From NCBI GenBank assembly GCA_002796345.1, contig PCXC01000060.1, positions 1 through 43,482 of the forward strand: a stretch of DNA of 43,482 bases. Reading direction: 5' to 3'. The position numbers were made by a program, and so were the translations under genes. This stretch comes from Deltaproteobacteria bacterium CG11_big_fil_rev_8_21_14_0_20_42_23. GTDB taxonomy: Bacteria > UBA10199 > 2-02-FULL-44-16. Numbering within the stretch: position 1 is the first letter of the stretch; each line of letters begins with the position of its first letter. Shown here in pieces: positions 25,640-37,272 of the stretch. The notes beneath the pieces are model-generated. The model saw nothing but the letters and a program-made list of their open reading frames with translations. It had not been told where the DNA came from and made no database searches.

Positions 25640-25872
25640 GAGATGGATGTTCATTTTTTGAATTCTCTCACAAAATTCTCCCGAACCAGGCCTGCGTTAT
25701 GAGGAAGCAACCTTTTTCGAAACCTGCCGAAGAGTGATTGCGTGCGTCATAACGGCAGCGCAGTGCATCTTGCACTCTGGTGGGCTTTCGCTAGAAGAGC
25801 ACGCTGCAAAAACTTCCTTATCTGGTGAAGGAGAAATGTAGGATCATCAGGAGGGACATCAAAGGATACTGT

Positions 25873-26883
25873 TTGAAGAATTTTACCATCACCAGCAAAT
25901 CAGCCATAGTTGGCATTTTCCTGTTCACCACTCTTTTCTGCATCGCTTGCAGCCAAAGTGCGCAGCAGCACATTCCATTCATCCCCGAGTCTGAAACAGC
26001 GCCGCAAAGCGAGAGCCCACAAGCGCCGAGCTCAGACTTGGTAGCTACACTTTCCGATCAAGTAGGCGTTGAACGCATCACCTACCATATTGGGCCCATC
26101 AACCTCACCAGCAAAGAAAAATCTTACGAACAGGCTGAAGCCTTCAGCCAAATGAACTTCAAGCTCGATCATCCCATGTGGGTCTTGGGATTCGAACCAA
26201 AAGTGGTCACGGGCACTGGCGAAGAACTGCCAGCCCAACTGCTAAAACGCGTGAGCCTCATCAACAAACATGAAGACAACATTCTGTGTAAGGGGAAAAA
26301 TGAAGGGAATACCTTTGCTGTTGCCAACAGTTTGCTCACCAAGGTCAACTTCCCCAAAGGCTACGGCTACCCACTTTTGCCGTCGGACCCCATTGAAGTG
26401 AATGCACATATGGAAAATAATTTGGATCAAGATTTTTATGATGTTTATGTTGAAATCACCCTCGTCACAAAACCGCTAAGCGAGTTTGGCACAGTAAAAG
26501 ACCTCACCCCTCTTTTTCTCAACTTCGACCCTTGCAACGACGGCACACTGGATATCACGCCCGAAAGCTTGGATGAAAAAACGGCAAGCTATGAACTTCC
26601 GCTGAAGGCCAAGTTGGTGTTTGCGCATGCAGTGATTGACGATTACGGCGTCTCGTTAGAACTGCTGAAAAATCAAAGCAATGATGCTGTGTGGGAAGCC
26701 GATGCCGATTTGGATGCAGACTCGCACATCATCAACATCGAAAACAATCCCTTCGAAGATCCACAAGGCACAAACTTCAAAAGCGGTGACGAAATCACCT
26801 TGGGCGTCACCTACAACAACTCATCAGACCAATGGCTCTACGACAGCAACGCCGCAGCCATGCTGTATTTCTCGGTGGAATAG
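25873..26883 (+). CDS. Lipoprotein with PHM-like beta-sandwich features (336 aa)
   Basis: I start at TTG 25873 because AAAGGA lies 6 bases upstream and the predicted product then begins with a clean lipoprotein signal (MKNFTITSKSAIVGIFLFTT... FCIAC, Cys26). A GTG at 25825 in the same frame would add 16 basic residues before the signal. The mature protein opens with a Ser/Pro/Glu-rich linker, then a beta-rich region: ITYHIGPINLTSKEK, WVLGFEPKVVTGTGEELPAQL, then PKGYGYPLLPSDPIEVNAHM. This spacing of strands recalls copper-dependent monooxygenase (PHM/DBH-type) beta-sandwiches, but the usual His pairs are absent, so the resemblance is weak. Function unknown; it is a single gene. Confidence 0.7.
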   Translation: MKNFTITSKSAIVGIFLFTTLFCIACSQSAQQHIPFIPESETAPQSESPQAPSSDLVATLSDQVGVERITYHIGPINLTSKEKSYEQAEAFSQMNFKLDHPMWVLGFEPKVVTGTGEELPAQLLKRVSLINKHEDNILCKGKNEGNTFAVANSLLTKVNFPKGYGYPLLPSDPIEVNAHMENNLDQDFYDVYVEITLVTKPLSEFGTVKDLTPLFLNFDPCNDGTLDITPESLDEKTASYELPLKAKLVFAHAVIDDYGVSLELLKNQSNDAVWEADADLDADSHIINIENNPFEDPQGTNFKSGDEITLGVTYNNSSDQWLYDSNAAAMLYFSVE

Positions 26884-27090: not shown

Positions 27091-28152
27091 ATGGCAACAC
27101 TTCCCATACAACTTCGCCTCCCTTTTTCAGGGCAAATAACAGGAAGCAGCGCTGCACCGCACACAGCACTTGCCACTCCTCAAACTCCAACAATCCAAAA
27201 AAAGATTGGACACTGGCTCGTTCCAACTGGAAACGATGAATTTCTCTTGCCAAACGAGCTCCATCCTCTTCAAGCTCGTCCCATTTTATCTCAAGCACCT
27301 CATGGTGCCATCGTGTCTGTAGGAAGTGAACGTTTACTTTTTCATGCACTCCAAATGCCTTCTGTAACACATATTCTTGGAGTTGATTATTCACCTTCAA
27401 TTGTTCGCTTTCACCGTATTAACAATGCTCTCCTACGAACTTATGATAGTTGCGACAACTATATGCAGGCCAGAACATGCGATAACTACGAAGTTTGGAG
27501 AAATCATTTCACCTCAGGAAATCTCACTCATGATGAGTATCTCGCAGTAAGTGATAAAGAGACATTTAAATGGTGGTCTCAAGTTATAGGACCAAACAAA
27601 GCTTGGAATTATGTTTATGAAAAAGCTGAAGAAGCCAACTCACCTTTTTACGGTGTACAGTACATGGGGGACGCTAAGCTCTTTTCGCAAGTAGCATCGC
27701 TCGCACAAAGAGGTGCTTACACTGCCATGTGCATTGATCTTGGAGAAGCTGCTGCGCTTGAACAATTAGCCACAAATGTTCAGCAAAACTTTGAGCCGAT
27801 TAGTGTGTTTGATTTAAGCAATGCTTGGCAAGATGAGTTTCCAAACAGTTACCTTGGCGTCTTAAAAACTGCCACTCTTCTGGAAAGCATTATCCCACTT
27901 ATGCATGTTCACGGCTTAATACTGTTCACAATGGGAACACGCTTATCTTTCAACATTACCAGAATGGTCTATGTTGGTTTTCGGGTACAAGCACTTCATC
28001 AAATGCTGGGGAAGAGTGACACTTGGACCGGGAAAAAATATACAATGCAGCATGTCGTTATTCGCATGGCTGATATAATCAAAAGACAACTCACATTGGC
28101 AAACCAAAATAAACTCTGTTGCATGGATGGTATTGTAGTCGATGAAATGTAA
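27091..28152 (+). CDS. Rossmann/methyltransferase-like protein of unknown function (353 aa)
   Basis: No signal peptide is present. After a Pro/Thr-rich N-terminus there is FLLPNELHPLQ, then GAIVSVGSERLLFHAL (a glycine-poor motif-I-like loop) and HILGVDYSPSIVRFHRINNALLRT, where the Asp would sit at the second strand of a class I SAM-dependent fold. Later YLGVLKTATLLESIIPLMH follows. This order recalls the LIC_10091-type family of methyltransferase-like proteins, judged by eye. No catalytic function can be named. The start has no clear ribosome-binding site. The gene stands alone, flanked by inverted hairpin repeats, which suggests a cassette. Confidence 0.65.
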   Translation: MATLPIQLRLPFSGQITGSSAAPHTALATPQTPTIQKKIGHWLVPTGNDEFLLPNELHPLQARPILSQAPHGAIVSVGSERLLFHALQMPSVTHILGVDYSPSIVRFHRINNALLRTYDSCDNYMQARTCDNYEVWRNHFTSGNLTHDEYLAVSDKETFKWWSQVIGPNKAWNYVYEKAEEANSPFYGVQYMGDAKLFSQVASLAQRGAYTAMCIDLGEAAALEQLATNVQQNFEPISVFDLSNAWQDEFPNSYLGVLKTATLLESIIPLMHVHGLILFTMGTRLSFNITRMVYVGFRVQALHQMLGKSDTWTGKKYTMQHVVIRMADIIKRQLTLANQNKLCCMDGIVVDEM

Positions 28153-28253: not shown

Positions 28254-28284
28254 AAAATCAAAGGCATCATTACACCAAACAAAC

Positions 28285-28336
28285 TGAATCTCAGCCTCAG
28301 CAACACCTTTTGCTACTAGGGTCAATGTTGAGTTTT
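28285..28336. repeat. Diverged copy of the thiI 3' end (distal repeat)
   Basis: These 52 bases match 31261-31314, the last codons of thiI, with about 3 to 5 substitutions and a 2-base gap; the shared part includes CAACACCTTTTGCTAC or TAACACCTTTTGCTAC. In the thiI frame it reads LVAKGVAEAEIQF, compared with LVAKGVTEAEIQVV in the intact gene. The copy overlaps the last codons of the MFS gene. It looks like one border of an insertion at the 3' end of thiI. Confidence 0.75.
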
Positions 28337-29548
28337 AATACCGCCGCACACATCACGTCGCCACCGCATCACGCACATGACGAGTATTGCAAGACCACCA
28401 ATTGTCGACATAATCCACCACCAACCAACAACTGGCCAACCGTACTGCACAACACCACCCAAGTAGTGAATCCCACCGTATGCGGCACCGGCACGCGCAA
28501 CAGCAGCCATGGTGTGATTGATACTCTGCAAATATGCATGAAGTGTTTCGTGTGTATCAGTACTAATGAGATAATCGATGTAAGGAAAGATGAACATCTC
28601 TCCCAAGGTAACACATAACAACGCCGGTAAGAGCGTATAAACATTCCAATAGACGGCAAAACACATCATACCCAATGTCATACAGATAAGTCCGAACAAC
28701 AAACCACTATCACGCCATCGTGAATGCAGTATGGTAAAAAGTATGCGTACACGCTGTTGACCAAGAACGATGATCAATGCATTCAACGAAAGAACAATGC
28801 CTACATACGATGGAAGCACTAATGTCTGCTCAAAATAGAGTGGGACGAGTTCAAAAATTTGTAAAAAAAGAAAGACTGCAATACACGATATCCCAATTAA
28901 ACCAAATCCTCTTCGCACTCCATAGCTATCACCATCATCCCAGATATTGCGAAAACACTCTCTCCACGTAATACCAGAGGCAACTCCTGGCGTTCGCTCT
29001 AGCATCCACTTAGCCATGCCAGCGGCAATAACAATACAAGCAGCTGTACCCAACACCACCCACCGCGGAGCATATTCATACGGCAGATAAAATGCCACAG
29101 CAGTGCCGATGGCAGTGCCAGCATTAATCCCAATATACATAGCGGTAAATCCCGACATACGGAATTCTACCGGCAAGCGATTCACATAGCCACGACTGGC
29201 AACACCAGTAATGGAAAACCCAATCCCAGCAAAAGCCAAAGCTCCCACCACACCAAAAAATGCCGTACTCCATGCAACAATGAACAAACCAATCGCACCC
29301 ATTATATAACCAATAACTTGGCTTCGCTGATAACCGATTCGTTCCACCCACGGTGTCACGACAATAGATAGACCACGCTCAGAAAATCCGTAGACAGCTA
29401 CAGCTAATGCCACTTCGGACAATGAATAGGCATATGGTGCGCGCTGTAGTAAAATCGCCAAGATCGGCATCAAAAGATAATAGCCAACGTAATAAATAAA
29501 ACGTGAAATGTAGACGCCGCGAATGTGTTGAGTTGATGTCGCTGTCAT
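28322..29548 (-). CDS. MFS exporter (408 aa)
   Basis: This is a twelve-segment major facilitator superfamily protein. Segment 1 (GVYISRFIYYVGYYLLMPILAILL) is followed by the cytoplasmic loop region around ERIGYQRSQVIGYIMGAIG, which carries the MFS loop 2-3 pattern, then GIGFSITGVASRGYVNRLP. The closest general type is the MdtH-like or drug:H+ antiporter branch. Its ATG overlaps the stop of the TPR gene by 4 bases, so the two are made together. As the last gene of a peptide-TPR-MFS operon it may export the peptide product or a derivative; this is inference. Its 3' end lies inside the diverged thiI repeat. Confidence 0.85.
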   Translation of the reverse strand: MTATSTQHIRGVYISRFIYYVGYYLLMPILAILLQRAPYAYSLSEVALAVAVYGFSERGLSIVVTPWVERIGYQRSQVIGYIMGAIGLFIVAWSTAFFGVVGALAFAGIGFSITGVASRGYVNRLPVEFRMSGFTAMYIGINAGTAIGTAVAFYLPYEYAPRWVVLGTAACIVIAAGMAKWMLERTPGVASGITWRECFRNIWDDGDSYGVRRGFGLIGISCIAVFLFLQIFELVPLYFEQTLVLPSYVGIVLSLNALIIVLGQQRVRILFTILHSRWRDSGLLFGLICMTLGMMCFAVYWNVYTLLPALLCVTLGEMFIFPYIDYLISTDTHETLHAYLQSINHTMAAVARAGAAYGGIHYLGGVVQYGWPVVGWWWIMSTIGGLAILVMCVMRWRRDVCGGIKTQH

Positions 29549-30885
29549 TTATGACATTCATCTTTCTGTGCCGTCGTATTCAATTGTCGATGCTGATACT
29601 GCTGCACCGCGTTCCCACATTGTACATTTCGATTGGCTGTGTTGTATTCGTCAATGTACTCAGAAAATTGCGGAACGATCTGTGCGCCGATATCGATATG
29701 CGCGCGCAATTTTTCCACAGTGCTTAATCCTTGTGGATCGCTCCGTAATGCCAACATATAAAATACCACCGCATCCTGCGATCTCCCCAAATGTTCTAAA
29801 CATTGGGCATGCATAAATGCCGCTACCGCTTGGCCCGGTTGCCCAATTGCAAAGGCGCGCAGATATGATGCCGCCGCAGCTTCGATCTCACGCCGCTCTA
29901 TCTGTACCTGCCCAAGATGCAAGTGCAAACGCGGATCATTCGGACAAAGAGCAACGAGTTCCATGGATTTTGCTAATGCCATATCGAGATCACCAAGCCA
30001 TAAAGCCTCTTTGGTACGACTTTCCAAAACCGGATGCAACATCTCCTTCGCAGCAATGTGATAGAAATCAAAATCAGGATCGTCGGCGAACTCATGTTCA
30101 ACATGCACAATCAACTCACGGGCGTAATGTTCAGCCTGCTCCATGACCGCATGAACTGCATCACGATCGTTACGCATTTGGGGAATAAAGCCATAGACGC
30201 GATAGTAGCGACTCAAAAAACGGAGACGATCCACAGAGTTGATCTGCAATCTATCCGTATCTAAAATCTCCCAGTGGCGTTTACACCACTGATCAGCAAC
30301 CTCCACATTATGAGCATGTTTGATATTCGCGATGATCATTTGATAGGATGCGTGCAAGGCAATCAAGCTATCACGTGGTGCACGCTCATAAATTTGCATA
30401 AACGGATCAAACGAAAAGTCTTCGATAGCATTGGCACCCCAAAGACTGTGCTGCGCCATGGAAGTCCAATACATAATCTCATATGACGCCACAATAGGCT
30501 GCGCATGGTCCGTTGCGCTTCCCAGTTGGTAGGCCACATCGTACAAACACAACTTACTCAAAAGCTGCAGTAGCAACGATTGTTGTGGCCGCTCTAATAT
30601 TGAGTAACTGCTGACGGCATTTTGTAACGCTTCCCATTGCAGTGTATGCCAAGTTTTCGGTATGCGTAACGGATCATCGCTGATATATTCGCCAAATCCT
30701 GCAGCTACAAATAAATCACGGCGAAATGTTTGCGGCAACACTGACTGGATTAATGGCAGTGTTTTTTCAGCAAACAAATTGTCATACGCTATCAAAGGTG
30801 CAAAGGCATGAAATGGCGCGTTGGCTGGCACCTGACTTAAATTGAGATACGACTGACAAAGCCAGCCGGTATAATTGCATAACAT
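29545..30885 (-). CDS. TPR-like protein in the peptide/MFS operon (446 aa)
   Basis: This is a cytoplasmic, helical protein without signal or membrane segments. The C-terminal third (about 300-400) contains TPR-type repeats: ALWLGDLDMALAKSMELVALCPNDPRLHLHLGQ, then ERREIEAAAASYLRAFAIG and HLGRSQDAVVFYMLALRSDP. The N-terminal 280 residues are helical, rich in Trp/Tyr/Leu, and match no family I know. The ATG at 30885 has AAAAGGAG 6 bases upstream; an upstream start at 30921 would fall in the hairpin and is rejected. It sits 61 bases after an 18-codon peptide gene and overlaps the MFS gene. It could bind, modify or sense the peptide; nothing in it looks like a known modifying enzyme. Confidence 0.75.
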   Translation of the reverse strand: MLCNYTGWLCQSYLNLSQVPANAPFHAFAPLIAYDNLFAEKTLPLIQSVLPQTFRRDLFVAAGFGEYISDDPLRIPKTWHTLQWEALQNAVSSYSILERPQQSLLLQLLSKLCLYDVAYQLGSATDHAQPIVASYEIMYWTSMAQHSLWGANAIEDFSFDPFMQIYERAPRDSLIALHASYQMIIANIKHAHNVEVADQWCKRHWEILDTDRLQINSVDRLRFLSRYYRVYGFIPQMRNDRDAVHAVMEQAEHYARELIVHVEHEFADDPDFDFYHIAAKEMLHPVLESRTKEALWLGDLDMALAKSMELVALCPNDPRLHLHLGQVQIERREIEAAAASYLRAFAIGQPGQAVAAFMHAQCLEHLGRSQDAVVFYMLALRSDPQGLSTVEKLRAHIDIGAQIVPQFSEYIDEYNTANRNVQCGNAVQQYQHRQLNTTAQKDECHK

Positions 30886-30904
30886 AACATTCTCCTTTTC
30901 ATGA

Positions 30905-30939
30905 CAAAGTAAAAGGGGCAACCACCCAGCAGTCGCCCC
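30905..30939 (-). terminator. Hairpin between the peptide gene and the TPR gene
   Basis: On the minus-strand RNA, GGGGCGAC pairs with GUUGCCCC (eight pairs including one G-U), then UUUUACUUU follows. The G-U pair would be a mismatch on the other strand, so the structure is selected on this one. It could be a leaky terminator or an mRNA-stabilising hairpin, as found after the tiny precursor genes of several peptide operons. Confidence 0.6.
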
Positions 30940-30946
30940 CTCACCG

Positions 30947-31003
30947 TTAGAAACGGATCGTAATATGATCTCGCGTATCTGCCGTTATGTAGCGTGTAAA
31001 CAT
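30947..31003 (-). CDS. Short peptide gene (18 aa) heading the TPR-MFS operon
   Basis: The product is MFTRYITADTRDHITIRF. The sequence AAAGGGGGTGAT, almost the full anti-Shine-Dalgarno complement, lies with the GGGGG block 7 bases before the ATG at 31003. An in-frame ATG at 31021 would add MKGGDV but has no ribosome-binding site. The peptide has two arginine-aspartate/threonine clusters and a C-terminal Phe; it has no signal peptide, no cysteine and no double-glycine. It may be a leader peptide controlling the hairpin downstream, or a small precursor/signal peptide for the TPR and MFS products. I recognise no family. That it is translated is supported only by the ribosome-binding site and context. 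Confidence 0.5.
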   Translation of the reverse strand: MFTRYITADTRDHITIRF

Positions 31004-31250
31004 AACATCACCCCCTTTCATGTGATAATCAGTGTTACAACCATCATGCCAACACATACAATCGTCTAAGATATTGAAATCATGTCAGCCACAATAGGAG
31101 TGATCCGCATTTCTGTAGTAAAGCTGTTCTGTTTTACGAATTTCAGAACGTCGATATTGGAGGAGGGATGACAAAAAGAATGAAGCAAAGAGATCGACAC
31201 TTCATTTCACTCATTCACAATGGGCATAGTGACAAACAAGCATTGCCTTC

Positions 31251-32414
31251 TTACACCACTTGAATCTCAGCCTCGGTAACACCTTTTGCTACGAGGGCTT
31301 CAATATTGAGTTTTGCTTCTGCCCGCTGAAGTTCACCTGGCCTGGTTTTGGTGGCGGGTTTGTCTGGCATGAGGTAGCTGCAGCAGTCGTCGTGCGGTTC
31401 GCATGAGGTGTCGTAGGTGCCTATTTTTTTGGCTTCATCGATAATTTCTTGTTTGTCCATTCCAATCAGCGGACGAAGCATGGGCATGCTAATCACTTCT
31501 TCGATGTGTGCCAAGTTGCTTAAGGTTTGCGACGCCACTTGCGAAAGCACTTCGCCCGAAACAAGGGCAAGCGCCCTCTTCTGCTGCGCCAGCTTTTCTG
31601 CAATGCGCAACATAAAACGCCGATACAACAGCACGCGATATTCTTCGGCCGAAGCCTTGATGATGGCTTGCTGAATTTCGCCAAAAGGAACAATGGCAAT
31701 TTCTGCTTTGCAACGATCGCGACAAACGATTTCGGCAAGGTCTAACACTTTTTCCACCGAAGCGCGGCTAGTAAATGGTGCAGAATGAAAGTGAATAAAA
31801 AACGGTTCACATCCGCGGCGCATCATTCTAAAACTTGCAAGTGGCGAATCAATTCCGCCCGAAAGCAAACAGGCAAGTTTCCCCGCAGAAGCAAGTGGCA
31901 AGCCACCTGCAGCCTGAAGCCTTTCGGTTGAAACATAAGCTTCGCCATTTTGCAGTTCGATGGAAAGTTCCAAAGCTGGATGTTTCAAATCTACTTTCCA
32001 TCCTTTTGTTTCCACCACGCGCGCGCCAATTTCGCGGCTAAGCTCTTCCGACTTCATCGGGAAACGTTTGTCCGCCCTTTTCGTTCGCACACAAAAACTT
32101 GTTGGTGATTCGCTTGGCAATAAGCTTTCGCATGTTTTCCAAATGGCTTCCAAGGTGAATTCTGTTTTTACGGCAAGCGCCATGTTGGAAAGTCCAAAGA
32201 CGCGCTGCAGTTTTTGCATCGCAAACTGCGCATCAAACCCTTGCGGCAGATCCACACACAACCTGCCAAACAATTTGCGCAGCTTCAGCACTTCGGCATC
32301 GCGACCAAGCGCAAAACGAATGTTGCGCGCAACCTGATCTTCAAACATGCCACGGTTTTTCCCCTTCAAGCATAACTCGCCGTAGTGCAAAACAATGGTG
32401 CGATGATTCTCCAT
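31251..32414 (-). CDS. thiI: tRNA 4-thiouridine synthase ThiI
   Basis: This enzyme adenylates U8 of tRNA for sulfur transfer and may also serve thiazole synthesis. The 387-aa protein has an N-terminal ferredoxin-like/THUMP region (to about residue 165), the PP-loop ATP site SGGIDSP (185-191), and the SYLMPDKPATK stretch with paired Cys near 345. It stops there: the C-terminal rhodanese domain of E. coli ThiI is absent, as in many bacteria that use a separate sulfur carrier. The start is MENHRTIVLHYGELCLKGKNRG with GAGGA 7 bases upstream. Its 3' end coincides with the border of the peptide/TPR/MFS insertion. Confidence 0.95.
   Translation of the reverse strand: MENHRTIVLHYGELCLKGKNRGMFEDQVARNIRFALGRDAEVLKLRKLFGRLCVDLPQGFDAQFAMQKLQRVFGLSNMALAVKTEFTLEAIWKTCESLLPSESPTSFCVRTKRADKRFPMKSEELSREIGARVVETKGWKVDLKHPALELSIELQNGEAYVSTERLQAAGGLPLASAGKLACLLSGGIDSPLASFRMMRRGCEPFFIHFHSAPFTSRASVEKVLDLAEIVCRDRCKAEIAIVPFGEIQQAIIKASAEEYRVLLYRRFMLRIAEKLAQQKRALALVSGEVLSQVASQTLSNLAHIEEVISMPMLRPLIGMDKQEIIDEAKKIGTYDTSCEPHDDCCSYLMPDKPATKTRPGELQRAEAKLNIEALVAKGVTEAEIQVV
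31261..31314. repeat. thiI 3'-end repeat (proximal copy)
   Basis: This is the intact 3' coding end of thiI, matched by the diverged copy at 28285-28336 in the same orientation. The pair forms a direct repeat around a segment of about 3 kb. Confidence 0.75.
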
Positions 32415-32901: not shown

Positions 32902-35900
32902 ATGGCAACAAAAGAAAGCGCACTCAAAAAACCACGCGGCAAAAAAAAGGGGGAAGTACGAGCCGTAAAAAAGGGAATCAGTTTTTCTCGTTTTTTCACT
33001 CGTCCCGGCATCAATCCTCTTGAAGAATTAAAGTATTCCAAGCGCTCTTCTTTAATTACCAATCCCGACGGCTCGGTTGTGTTCAAAATGGACGACGCCG
33101 AAGTTCCCGAAACCTGGTCGCAACTTGCAACCGATATTTTAGTTTCGAAATATTTCCGCAAACGCGGCGTTCCTGGAAAAGGATATGAGTCCTCCGCAAA
33201 ACAAGTGGTGACACGCATTGCACGCTCCATCAGAAAAGCTGGTGAGGAACTGGAAAATTATTTCGCCACCAAAGAAGATGCCGATATTTTTGAAGCAGAA
33301 CTCACGCACATGCTCATCACGCAGAAGGGCGCCTTCAACTCGCCGGTGTGGTTTAACTGCGGACTCTCCCAAGAATATGGCATCGAAGGCAGCGGCGGCA
33401 ATTGGTTTTGGGATCAGCAAAGCAACGCCATGGCGCAAACAGCCGATGCCTACAGCCATCCACAATGCTCTGCTTGTTTTATTCAATCAGTCAACGATGA
33501 CCTCATGTCTATTTTTGATCTCGTGAAAAACGAAGCGCGTCTTTTCAAATTTGGATCAGGAACCGGAACAAACTTTTCGCGCATTAGATCTCGTCACGAA
33601 AAACTTTCTGGCGGTGGAACTTCATCTGGTTTGATGTCTTTCCTCGAAGTTCTAGATCGCGGAGCTGGCGCAACCAAATCTGGCGGAACCACGCGCCGTG
33701 CGGCCAAGATGGTATGCCTCGATATCGATCATCCAGAAATTTTTGATTTCATCACCTGGAAAGCGCGCGAAGAAAAGAAAGTAGCTGCGCTCATTAAAGC
33801 TGGCTATCCGTCAGACTTCAACGGCGAAGCCTACAAAACCGTTTCGGGCCAAAACTCAAACAACTCGGTTCGCGTCTCCGATGAATTTATGTACGCGTAC
33901 TTGAACGACGAAGAGTGGTCTACACGCGCACGCACAACGGGCGAAAAATTGGAAACCTTCAAGGCTCGCGAGCTCATGCACAAAATGGCAAACGCCGCAT
34001 GGAGTTGTGCTGACCCTGGCATTCAGTACGACAGCATCATCAACAAATGGCACACCTGCAAAAACACAGACCGCATCAATGCAAGTAATCCGTGCGTCAC
34101 CGGAGATACACTTGTAGCAACAACTGAAGGCTTGAAGCCTATTCAAGATCTGGTTGGAAAAACAACTGATCTTCTCACTTTTGATGGTCGCGTTGTTCAC
34201 GTGGGAAAAATTTTCCCAACAGGTTTCAAAGATACTTATGAACTTCGTACAAAAAGTGGATACACTTTAAAACTCACTGCCGATCATAAAGTATGGACAG
34301 AAAACAGAGGCGATGTTGCTGCGAAAGACTTAAGCTCTGAAGACAAACTCGTGCTTATTCCTGGGCATTTTGGCCAGGCTCATCTCGATCAGCAAATGGC
34401 CGAGTTTATTGGATTAGCGCTTGGCGATGGATGTAAAGCAACAGACGCTCAAGGCAGCATCACCATTACGATGGCAAACGAAGAAAGCGAAATTCTGGAA
34501 GAAGTCGTTGCTTATCTCAACACTGTAAAAGAAAACAGAAAAATTGCTGGCGTTCGCTACACTGAAACAGGCGCAAGAACTTCAACTTCTGCAGAAATGG
34601 TTACTTCAATTGTAGATAAATATGCCACTCTCAATGAGGGTTCACATAAAAAATCTCTTCTCACTTCAGCGTTCGAACTTGATAAACCAAGCGTAGCTGC
34701 GTTGTTAAGAGGTCTTTTCACTTCCGATGGAACAGTAGCCAACTATGGTGAAAAATCTCAGTATGTAGCACTCGATTCAAGCAGCCTCGAACTCCTTCAA
34801 CAAGTGCAAAAACTGCTTCTCAACTTTGGCATTAAAGCAAAGTTGTACATCAATAGACGAGCTGGAAAATTAGAATCACATCTTCCCGATGGAAATGGTG
34901 GTTTAAAAAAATATGCTGTAAAAGAAATGCACTCTCTTCGCATTAGCAGATCTTCTCGTGTTCTTTTCGAAGAATTCATTGGTTTTCATCCGAAAAGCAA
35001 AAAAGCGATTTCACTGAGACAGCTCAATGAAAGTGTTGGCACTTATCTAGACACCCTCACAGATTCTTTTGCTTCACTCGAATTTCTTGGAACAAAAAAA
35101 GTCTATGACCTTACAGAGCCCATCACACACCATTTTGCCGCTGATGGCATTTTAATTCATAACTGCTCAGAGTACATGTTCCTCGACAATTCGGCTTGTA
35201 ACTTGGCGTCACTTAACTTGATGAAGTTTTATGATGAAGCGAGCAACAGCTTCAACTTGGAAGGCTATCAACACGCTGCAAAAGTGTTCATCACGGCACA
35301 AGAAATTTTGGTCGATTTTTCTTCTTATCCAACAGAAGACATCGCAAAAAATTCTCACGATTACCGCCCACTTGGCTTAGGATATGCGAATTTAGGAACT
35401 TTGCTGATGGTGCAAGGTTTGTCTTACGATTCCAACGCCGCACGAAATTGGGCATCACTTTTCACCAGCATCATGCATGGTGTGGCGTACAAAACGTCAG
35501 CTGAAATTGCAGCGCAAAAGGGCGCGTTCCCTGGTTTTGCAAAAAATCGCGAGCCCATGCTTGAAGTCATCAACATGCACCGCGATGCAGCTTATGCCAT
35601 TCCAAGCAATGATCTTCCCGCTAGCTTTGTTTCCATCAACAAAAAGATTTGGGATGATTGTTTAACGCTTGGTTCAAAACATGGCTATCGCAATTCGCAA
35701 GTAACCGTGTTGGCACCAACGGGAACTATTGGCCTGCTCATGGATTGCGACACCACAGGTATTGAGCCAGACTTTGCACTTGTGAAATTTAAAAAGTTAG
35801 CGGGCGGCGGATATTTTAAAATTATCAATCGTTCGGTTCCACTTGCTTTGCAAAAACTTGGTTACGCTAAACATGAAATTGATGACATCATCAATTATAT

Positions 35901-37272
35901 TCAAGGAACATCATCGCTCGCAAACGCACCACACATCAATGTTGCAAGCTTGCGTAGCAAAGGGTTTAACGATCAAGACATCGCAACTATCGAATCACAA
36001 CTTCCTGGCGTATTTGAACTTGGATTTGCGTTCAACCCTTACAGCCTTGGCAAAGAAGCCATGGGTCGTTTTGGTTTCACCGAAGAGCAATACAACAAAC
36101 CTGGTTTTAATTTATTAAAAGAACTTGGCTTCAGCGATGCTCACATCAAAGAGGCAAACGTTCATATTTGTGGTTGCATGACCATTGAAGGTGCACCGCA
36201 TCTCAAAGATGAGCATCTTTCTATCTTTGACTGCGCAAACAAATGCGGCGAAAAAGGAAAACGTTTTCTCTCTCCTATTTCTCACATCAAAATGATGGCA
36301 GCTGCGCAACCGTTTTTATCCGGAGCCATTTCCAAAACGGTAAACGTTCCACACGAAACAACAGCGGAAGAAATTGAGCAGCTCTATGTAGAAGGTTGGA
36401 GATCAGGATTGAAAGCTGTTGCTATTTATCGTGATGGCTCAAAACTTTCTCAAGTTTTAACTTCAAGCAGCTCTGCTGAAAATGAAGATGAAAAAGCTGA
36501 AGCAAAAAAATCACCTGCACAAACAGAAGCGCCGCTCGCAGCGCAAGCAGCAAAGCCTATTCGCCGTCGATTGCCTAAAAAACGAAGAGGGCTCACACAC
36601 GAAGCAAGAGTGGGCGGACACAAAGTTTATCTTCGCACTGGTGAATATGAAGATGGTGGGCTTGGCGAAATTTTCATCGACATGCACAAAGAAGGCGCTG
36701 CTTTCAGAAGCATGATGAACTGCTTTGCCATCGCTATTTCACTTGGTTTGCAGCACGGCGTTCCACTTCAAGAATATGTCGACTGCTTCACCTTCACGCG
36801 CTTCGAACCAAACGGAACGGTGGATCATCCCAATATTAAAATGTCGACTTCGGTCATCGATTTTGTATTTCGCGTTTTAGGCATGGAATATTTAGGCCGC
36901 ACAGACTTCGTGCAAGTAAAGCCTACAAAAGATGATGATGTAAATATTGCGGTTCAAATGGATGAACTCGAACGTAAAGTTGCTCACAACAAAGTTCAAA
37001 AACAAATTGAAGAAACTGAAAAAGCAGAAGCAACAGTCGTAGCAACAAAAACAGAGAGCGTCATTGGAAGCGTTGGAAACATCCAAGCCACAAGCACTAG
37101 CTCTGGAGTAGTGGTTTCACTTTCAAGCAGCAAAACAACATCGGCAGCAAATAAACACTTGCAAAACATGATGGGCGACGCGCCATTTTGTGACGGATGC
37201 GGACACACCACCGTTCGCAACGGCTCATGCTACAAATGCTTGAACTGTGGAAATTCGATGGGCTGTAGTTAA
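32902..37272 (+). CDS. nrdJ: Class II (B12-dependent) ribonucleoside-diphosphate reductase with intein
   Basis: The enzyme makes deoxyribonucleotides with adenosylcobalamin, so it needs neither oxygen nor a second subunit. Of 1456 codons, 357 are an intein, leaving a host protein of 1099 aa. Seen are [12 protein letters not shown] (144-154), [25 protein letters not shown], then NP interrupted by the intein and resuming [19 protein letters not shown]. Joined, these give the N-P-C-x-E catalytic motif with the thiyl-radical Cys755. Further on are [22 protein letters not shown], a long Lys/Ala linker near 1200, a TSCPD-like domain (about 1215-1325, [14 protein letters not shown]), and a C-terminal zinc ribbon (FCDGCGH...[14 protein letters not shown]). 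A GGGGGA site precedes the ATG. It is a single-gene transcript with its own terminator. Confidence 0.96.
34093..35163 (+). other. Intein with LAGLIDADG homing endonuclease in NrdJ (357 aa)
   Basis: The inserted protein starts at Cys398 ([20 protein letters not shown]) and ends ILIHN (His753-Asn754) before the +1 Cys755: all residues of a standard splicing mechanism. The N-terminal block B region reads [13 protein letters not shown], with the T-x-x-H equivalent TADH, and the block F region reads [17 protein letters not shown]. Between them are two LAGLIDADG-type dodecapeptides, FIGLALGDG and [10 protein letters not shown], so the homing endonuclease appears complete. It should splice itself out after translation; the enzyme has no intact active site until then. 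Confidence 0.93.

What the first reader, a model, noticed from the sequence alone, without database searches (positions are those of the whole stretch)
28285..31314. Accessory insertion at the thiI 3' end carrying a peptide-TPR-MFS operon
The three genes here (18-codon peptide, TPR-like protein, MFS exporter) form a tight leftward operon: strong ribosome-binding site, hairpin after the peptide, and a 4-base overlap between the last two. The segment is bracketed by two copies of the thiI 3' end. A tiny precursor followed by a hairpin, a partner protein and an MFS exporter is the layout of small peptide systems (microcin C is one example), but no ThiF-, radical-SAM- or YcaO-like enzyme is present. 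It could be a new peptide signal, toxin or RiPP-like system, or a leader-regulated efflux operon.
Basis: partly seen in the sequence, partly recalled or inferred. Interest (0 to 1): 0.8.

Follow-up and report, generated by a model that had tools for sequence, protein, structure and literature searches.

The report
Small-peptide export operon with TPR partner
A three-gene bacterial operon encodes a tiny peptide, a helical partner protein and an export pump; relatives of the partner protein in very different bacteria sit beside their own tiny-peptide genes and often beside peptide-modifying enzymes, so this is probably a new variant of the systems that make small secreted peptide products.

Summary
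An 18-codon ORF with a strong Shine-Dalgarno, a 14-bp terminator-like hairpin, a 446-aa TPR protein and an MFS exporter form a leftward operon. It lies between thiI and a degenerate ~60-nt copy of the thiI 3' end. The TPR protein has no named family and is absent from the 45 other genomes searched in its phylum. Full-length homologues (16-31% identity; 164 bits with a profile built without it) occur in Streptomyces, a Pseudonocardiaceae-like genus, other actinomycetes, Rhizobium and Macrococcus. In 17 of 18 strong members, window included, I found a short ORF followed by a hairpin at the TPR operon. Two peptide families are conserved as protein: MAYETWESLADEVEISTGAADCWVCLVDA (pN 0.046, pS 0.316) and a PAFF...FF family. 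Homologous loci carry YcaO, arginase-family, oxygenase, peptidase and MFS/MATE genes, as RiPP clusters do. Best reading: a minimal RiPP-like operon. The TPR protein handles the peptide, the hairpin keeps peptide mRNA in excess (as in microcin C), and the MFS pump exports the product. In the window no modifying enzyme is linked and the peptide has no relative, so translation and product are unproven. Attenuated efflux is the main rival.

The parts
30947..31003 (-). 18-codon peptide ORF MFTRYITADTRDHITIRF, candidate precursor
   Evidence: SD match of 6 nt and hairpin -22.7 kcal/mol; no homologue of this peptide found
31007..31015 (-). Shine-Dalgarno GGGGGTGAT of the peptide ORF
   Evidence: sequence
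30912..30942 (-). Hairpin with U-rich tail between peptide and TPR gene (terminator-like, 14 pairs)
29545..30885 (-). TPR-family partner protein, 446 aa, SD AAGGAG at 30897-30892
   Evidence: full-length relatives in Streptomyces, other actinomycetes, Rhizobium, Macrococcus
28322..29548 (-). MFS exporter, 408 aa, 4-nt overlap with the TPR gene
   Evidence: (PF07690, 1.6e-21)
28282..28345 (-). Degenerate second copy of the thiI 3' end, left border of the segment; contains the end of the MFS gene
31258..31323 (-). Genuine thiI 3' end, right border of the segment
31251..32414 (-). thiI (tRNA 4-thiouridine synthase), intact
   Evidence: TIGR00342, 370 bits

Best explanation
The segment is a compact, probably horizontally acquired operon for a small peptide-derived product (RiPP-like), inserted at the thiI 3' end. 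Proposed working: (1) the 18-codon ORF is translated from a strong Shine-Dalgarno; (2) the hairpin right after its stop codon ends most transcripts, so that peptide mRNA is made in excess over the TPR and MFS messages, as in microcin C; (3) the TPR protein binds the peptide in its helical groove and presents it for maturation, or matures it itself; (4) the MFS pump exports the product. Shown: the anatomy, the recurring short ORF/hairpin/TPR/exporter layout, protein-level conservation of the peptide in two homologous groups, and linkage of homologues to RiPP-type enzymes. Inferred: translation in the window, transcription ending at the hairpin, peptide binding, and export of the peptide.
For: A profile built without the window protein gives it 163.7 bits over profile 38-379 of 415; generic TPR proteins reach at most 49 bits and only in the C-terminal repeats. 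Short ORF plus hairpin at the TPR operon in 17 of 18 strong members. Peptide conservation: seven copies of M[AS]YE[ST]WES..., pN 0.046 against pS 0.316; the PAFF...FF family in four actinomycete genomes. RiPP-type neighbours of homologues: YcaO + JmjC-like + MFS, arginase-family + MATE + M3 peptidases + O-methyltransferase, M17 aminopeptidase + MFS, 2OG oxygenase + MFS. The window's MFS matches MFS proteins of its own class and not those of the actinomycete clusters compared, and one of its relatives adjoins a 23-codon ORF and a DUF4135 (LanM-like) gene. The terminator between mccA and mccB raises peptide mRNA in microcin C (PMC6495379).
Against: No modifying enzyme or peptidase is linked in the window, and the genome has no YcaO; other enzyme families were not searched genome-wide. 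The window peptide has no detectable homologue and no shared motif with the other precursors. One strong homologue (L083) has no short ORF that I could find, and the Streptomyces plasmid ORF has a weak SD and a more distant hairpin. The single-sequence structure model is poor (pLDDT 49.5), so a peptide groove is not shown.
Confidence: 0.6

Rival explanations
1. Leader-peptide attenuation: the short ORF is a sensor, the hairpin an intrinsic terminator, and stalling on the ORF (by a drug or amino-acid shortage) lets transcription run into an efflux operon made of the TPR and MFS genes. The peptide has no function of its own.
For: Hairpin with U-rich tail 4 nt after the stop codon; the gene after it leads to an efflux-type pump; leader ORFs before resistance genes are common (own knowledge); one homologous locus carries a TetM-like ribosome protection gene.
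Against: In homologues the ORF runs up to about 55 codons and is conserved as protein; the exporter is sometimes elsewhere in the cluster or replaced by MATE; the ORF can precede YcaO or an arginase-family gene rather than a pump.
Confidence: 0.2
2. Peptide signalling: the peptide is exported unmodified, and the TPR protein is its receptor, in the manner of RRNPP/Rap proteins.
For: TPR proteins are the classic receptors of short peptides (own knowledge); no modifying enzyme is linked in the window.
Against: No HTH or other output domain in the TPR protein; homologues are linked to peptide-modifying enzymes, peptidases and O-methyltransferases; no secretion signal is apparent in the peptide.
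Confidence: 0.12
3. The short ORF is a chance ORF; the operon is an ordinary TPR-MFS pair.
For: The window peptide has no homologue; 10 of 56 control gaps also hold a short ORF with a hairpin at the looser threshold.
Against: 7/8 against 10/56 (p=2e-4), or 7/8 against 2/56 with a strong hairpin (p=4e-7); conserved peptides in homologues.
Confidence: 0.08

Closest known systems
Microcin C (mcc) operon
   Same: Tiny precursor gene, strong RBS, terminator hairpin between it and the next gene, MFS-type pump; in mcc the hairpin gives excess peptide mRNA (PMC6495379)
   Different: Peptide is 18, not 7 residues, and does not end in Asn; no MccB (ThiF-like) adenylyltransferase; a TPR protein stands in the enzyme's place
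Actinomycete TPR loci found here, such as YcaO-TPR-JmjC-like-MFS (L048) and arginase-TPR-MATE-propeller-M3 peptidase (L046)
   Same: Same TPR family, short ORF plus hairpin at the operon, exporter
   Different: They carry recognisable tailoring enzymes and longer precursors; the window operon has none
Biphenomycin clusters (BipC/PbsE, PMC12707348, PMC12257519)
   Same: RiPP operon with a short precursor, an MFS gene and a protein annotated as TPR
   Different: BipC/PbsE are arginases with Mn-binding motifs, which I do not see in the window TPR protein; also MNIO and B12-rSAM, not present here
PEARL clusters with TPR proteins (AmmC2, BhaC1; PMC12424672, PMC9850906)
   Same: Scaffold peptide plus TPR-containing protein in natural-product clusters
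RRNPP peptide receptors (Rap, PlcR, Rgg)
   Same: TPR protein beside a short peptide gene
   Different: No HTH domain; homologues sit in biosynthetic, not regulatory, settings

Membership tests
RiPP biosynthetic cluster | Gene for a ribosomally made precursor peptide | tested here: inconclusive
   Conserved in homologues with pN well below pS and in two peptide families; the window peptide itself has no homologue
RiPP biosynthetic cluster | Peptide-modifying enzyme encoded with it | tested here: not met
   Operon proteins match only TPR and MFS in Pfam; no YcaO in the genome; homologous loci do have YcaO, arginase-family, oxygenase genes. Other enzymes elsewhere in the genome not searched
RiPP biosynthetic cluster | Dedicated exporter | tested here: met
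   MFS_1 PF07690 at 1.6e-21, 4-nt overlap with the TPR gene
RiPP biosynthetic cluster | Modified peptide product | not testable with these tools
   Needs mass spectrometry
Microcin C | Very short precursor gene followed by a terminator hairpin | tested here: met
Microcin C | MccB ThiF-like adenylyltransferase | tested here: not met
   Absent from the operon and from the flanking genes examined
Microcin C | Precursor C-terminal Asn | tested here: not met
   Peptide ends in Phe
TPR family of this report | Full-length profile match, not only C-terminal TPR repeats | tested here: met
   163.7 bits, profile 38-379 of 415, window protein held out; controls at most 49 bits
RRNPP receptor | Output domain (HTH, or Rap N-terminal bundle) | tested here: not met
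   No such domain in Pfam or NCBIfam
Leader-peptide attenuator | Alternative terminator/antiterminator folds controlled by ribosome stalling | tested here: inconclusive
   Terminator-like hairpin present; no alternative fold was tested across relatives
Pearlin (PEARL) cluster | PEARL gene (lantibiotic-dehydratase family) | tested here: not met
   Absent from the operon; not searched genome-wide
Anti-phage defence system | Match to a PADLOC model | tested here: not met
   No hits for the TPR, MFS and two flanking proteins

The most novel reading that the evidence does not exclude
The TPR protein is a new kind of precursor-handling protein, in place of the usual RiPP recognition element or itself a maturase. 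It defines a widely scattered class of ribosomal peptide products, and the window shows the minimal three-gene form: peptide, TPR protein, exporter.
Probability: 0.3. Interest if true: 0.82.

Novelty: new variant of a known kind. Interest (0 to 1): 0.62.

Why it matters
RiPP clusters are usually found through their known enzymes. A TPR family that marks clusters with very different enzymes, or with none, gives a handle that such searches lack, and recovers precursors of 18-55 residues that gene callers often miss. If the TPR protein binds or modifies the peptide, it would be a new precursor-recognition fold. The three-gene operon is small enough to test directly.

Tried and rejected
The first profile over 385 genomes gave only generic TPR hits in the C-terminal repeats. 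The AlphaFold model from a single sequence was too poor to search with; homologues were not added because the tool admits only window sequences and loci of certain other tools. Defence system: no PADLOC hit. Phage origin: no hit in phages with the Rhizobium homologue. YcaO encoded elsewhere in the genome: absent. A Streptomyces tendae VOC hit lies in an unrelated setting. Weak TPR hits L085-L087 (51-67 bits, C-terminal part) showed no convincing short ORF and were left out of the family. BipC/PbsE were considered as the same family and set aside because they are arginases. A search of 136 more genomes of G947's family gave no further member.

Full report
What is there. On the minus strand, downstream of thiI (32414..31251), lie an 18-codon ORF (31003..30947, MFTRYITADTRDHITIRF), a hairpin (30942..30912), a 446-aa protein with C-terminal TPR repeats (30885..29545) and a 408-aa MFS protein (29548..28322). 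The peptide ORF is preceded by AAAGGGGGTGATGTT and the TPR gene by AAAAGGAGAATGTT. The hairpin has 14 pairs and a U-rich tail, and is by far the longest terminator-like site of the region. The left border is a degenerate copy of the thiI 3' end, and the last MFS codons lie in it. GC does not differ from the flanks.

Is it accessory. ThiI of the same-family genome G001 is followed by a glycerophosphodiesterase-like gene. The TPR family is absent from the other 45 genomes of the phylum, where the only other hit is a generic C-terminal TPR match. There is no integrase; the mechanism of insertion is open.

What the TPR protein is. Pfam and NCBIfam see only weak TPR repeats. A tblastn of plasmids found two Streptomyces plasmids with 30% identity over 89%. 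Stepwise searches then reached a Streptomyces genome, Rhizobium rhizogenes plasmids, Macrococcus armenti plasmids, three more actinomycetes and 13 genomes in a search of relatives of G846 (three of these have only weak, partial matches). With the window protein held out, a profile of seven homologues matches it over nearly the full length at 163.7 bits; generic TPR proteins match only the C-terminal repeats at 49 bits or less. Best conserved outside the repeats are L109, R229, P235, E288 and K292, which might line a binding groove (inference).

The short ORF recurs. Beside the homologues I read: Streptomyces MKRNTNNLFQTFNPKRPLTTLV; Rhizobium MVEFTSTKMEILSSLFII, at the start of the operon that follows the VOC-TPR-VOC operon; Macrococcus MKSFSTGKVRAALFPSPTT; L048 MEISWDLGQVDEEAQEFDVLGNKSY; L047 MSYESWESLADEVEISTGAADCWVCLVDA and six close relatives of it; L084 MDSIEQVAVEFAHETLSEMPHVL; and the PAFF group in L046, L049, L081 and L082. 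With the window that makes 17 of 18 strong members; L083 had none that I could find. In a mechanical scan, SD plus short ORF plus hairpin occurred in 7 of 8 TPR-operon gaps and 10 of 56 control gaps (Fisher 2e-4); with a strong hairpin 7/8 against 2/56 (4e-7). Caveats: the strict cut-off was set after seeing the data, several ORFs precede another gene of the operon rather than the TPR gene, the hairpin of L081 was not measured, and close relatives are not independent.

The peptides are under protein-level selection in relatives. Across seven copies of the 29-aa peptide, pN is 0.046 and pS 0.316. The PAFF family keeps PAFF and a second FF with an acidic tail. No such test is possible for the window peptide, which resembles none of them.

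Setting of the relatives. L048: YcaO (PF02624, 3e-27), TPR, a JmjC/cupin-like protein (my reading of the sequence; no NCBIfam hit), MFS. L046: arginase family, TPR, MATE-like, PQQ-like beta-propeller, M3-like peptidases, O-methyltransferase, SDR. L049: MATE, M3-like peptidase, O-methyltransferase, SDR. L075: M17 aminopeptidase and MFS. L047: a cysteine desulfurase-like PLP enzyme and MFS. L084: 2OG-Fe(II) oxygenase and MFS. Macrococcus: TPR, VOC, MATE, propeller, with ThiF, arginase and isochorismatase nearby. Rhizobium: VOC-TPR-VOC beside M28 peptidase, phosphonate genes and a TetM-like gene. This is what peptide natural-product clusters look like. The window's MFS is related to MFS proteins of its own class, not to those of the actinomycete clusters compared; one such relative adjoins a 23-codon ORF with AAAGGAGG and a DUF4135 gene.

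Mechanism. I take the operon as a minimal RiPP-like system. Ribosomes load on the peptide ORF, the hairpin ends most transcripts and leaves peptide mRNA in excess, as reported for mccA (PMC6495379); readthrough gives TPR protein and pump; the TPR protein binds and presents or matures the peptide; the pump exports it. The first step is supported by anatomy, the second by analogy, the third and fourth by linkage only. No tailoring enzyme is linked in the window and YcaO is absent from the genome, so either the TPR protein acts alone, an unlinked enzyme helps, or the peptide leaves unmodified.

Rivals. Attenuated efflux is the strongest rival for the window itself, since its ORF has no conserved relative and precedes a pump; it does not explain conserved 29-55-residue peptides or ORFs before YcaO and arginase genes. 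A peptide signal with a TPR receptor is possible but has no output domain.

Known or new. TPR proteins are mentioned in biphenomycin and PEARL clusters; the former are arginases and the latter could not be compared by sequence. No paper found in the library searched describes this family, but that library is incomplete. I rate it a new variant of a known kind.

Noticed in passing
window 32902-37272: Class II (B12-dependent) ribonucleotide reductase interrupted by an intein with a LAGLIDADG homing endonuclease domain.
   Followed up: no
window 27091-28152: Protein of family DUF7790 convergent with the operon; its neighbour 25825-26883 has no clear family and is not its paralogue.
   Followed up: partly
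L041:1-2260: Macrococcus armenti plasmid: ThiF-family gene, then a 25-codon ORF MKIEIVQLNEVELTKRGGRNEVGES with a 10-nt SD match and a hairpin, then an arginase-family gene; looks like a second peptide system beside the TPR one.
   Followed up: no
L041:8181-8183: The Macrococcus TPR gene is interrupted by an in-frame TAG, so that it is annotated as two proteins.
   Followed up: no
L088:1547-2700: Genome of the window's class: MFS relative, 23-codon ORF MDLEIIDLDQIEAEASIPETTSF with SD AAAGGAGG, and a DUF4135 (LanM-like) gene; a separate RiPP-like locus.
   Followed up: partly
L039:1-14847: Rhizobium rhizogenes plasmid cluster with phosphonate genes, cytidylyltransferase, LicD, phytanoyl-CoA dioxygenase and a TetM-like gene behind an 18-codon ORF with hairpin; the TetM-like gene suggests a ribosome-targeting product.
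   Followed up: no
L047:8110-10630: In seven related genomes the TPR protein is doubled, two copies of the family fused head to tail; the second copy matches the profile better.
   Followed up: partly
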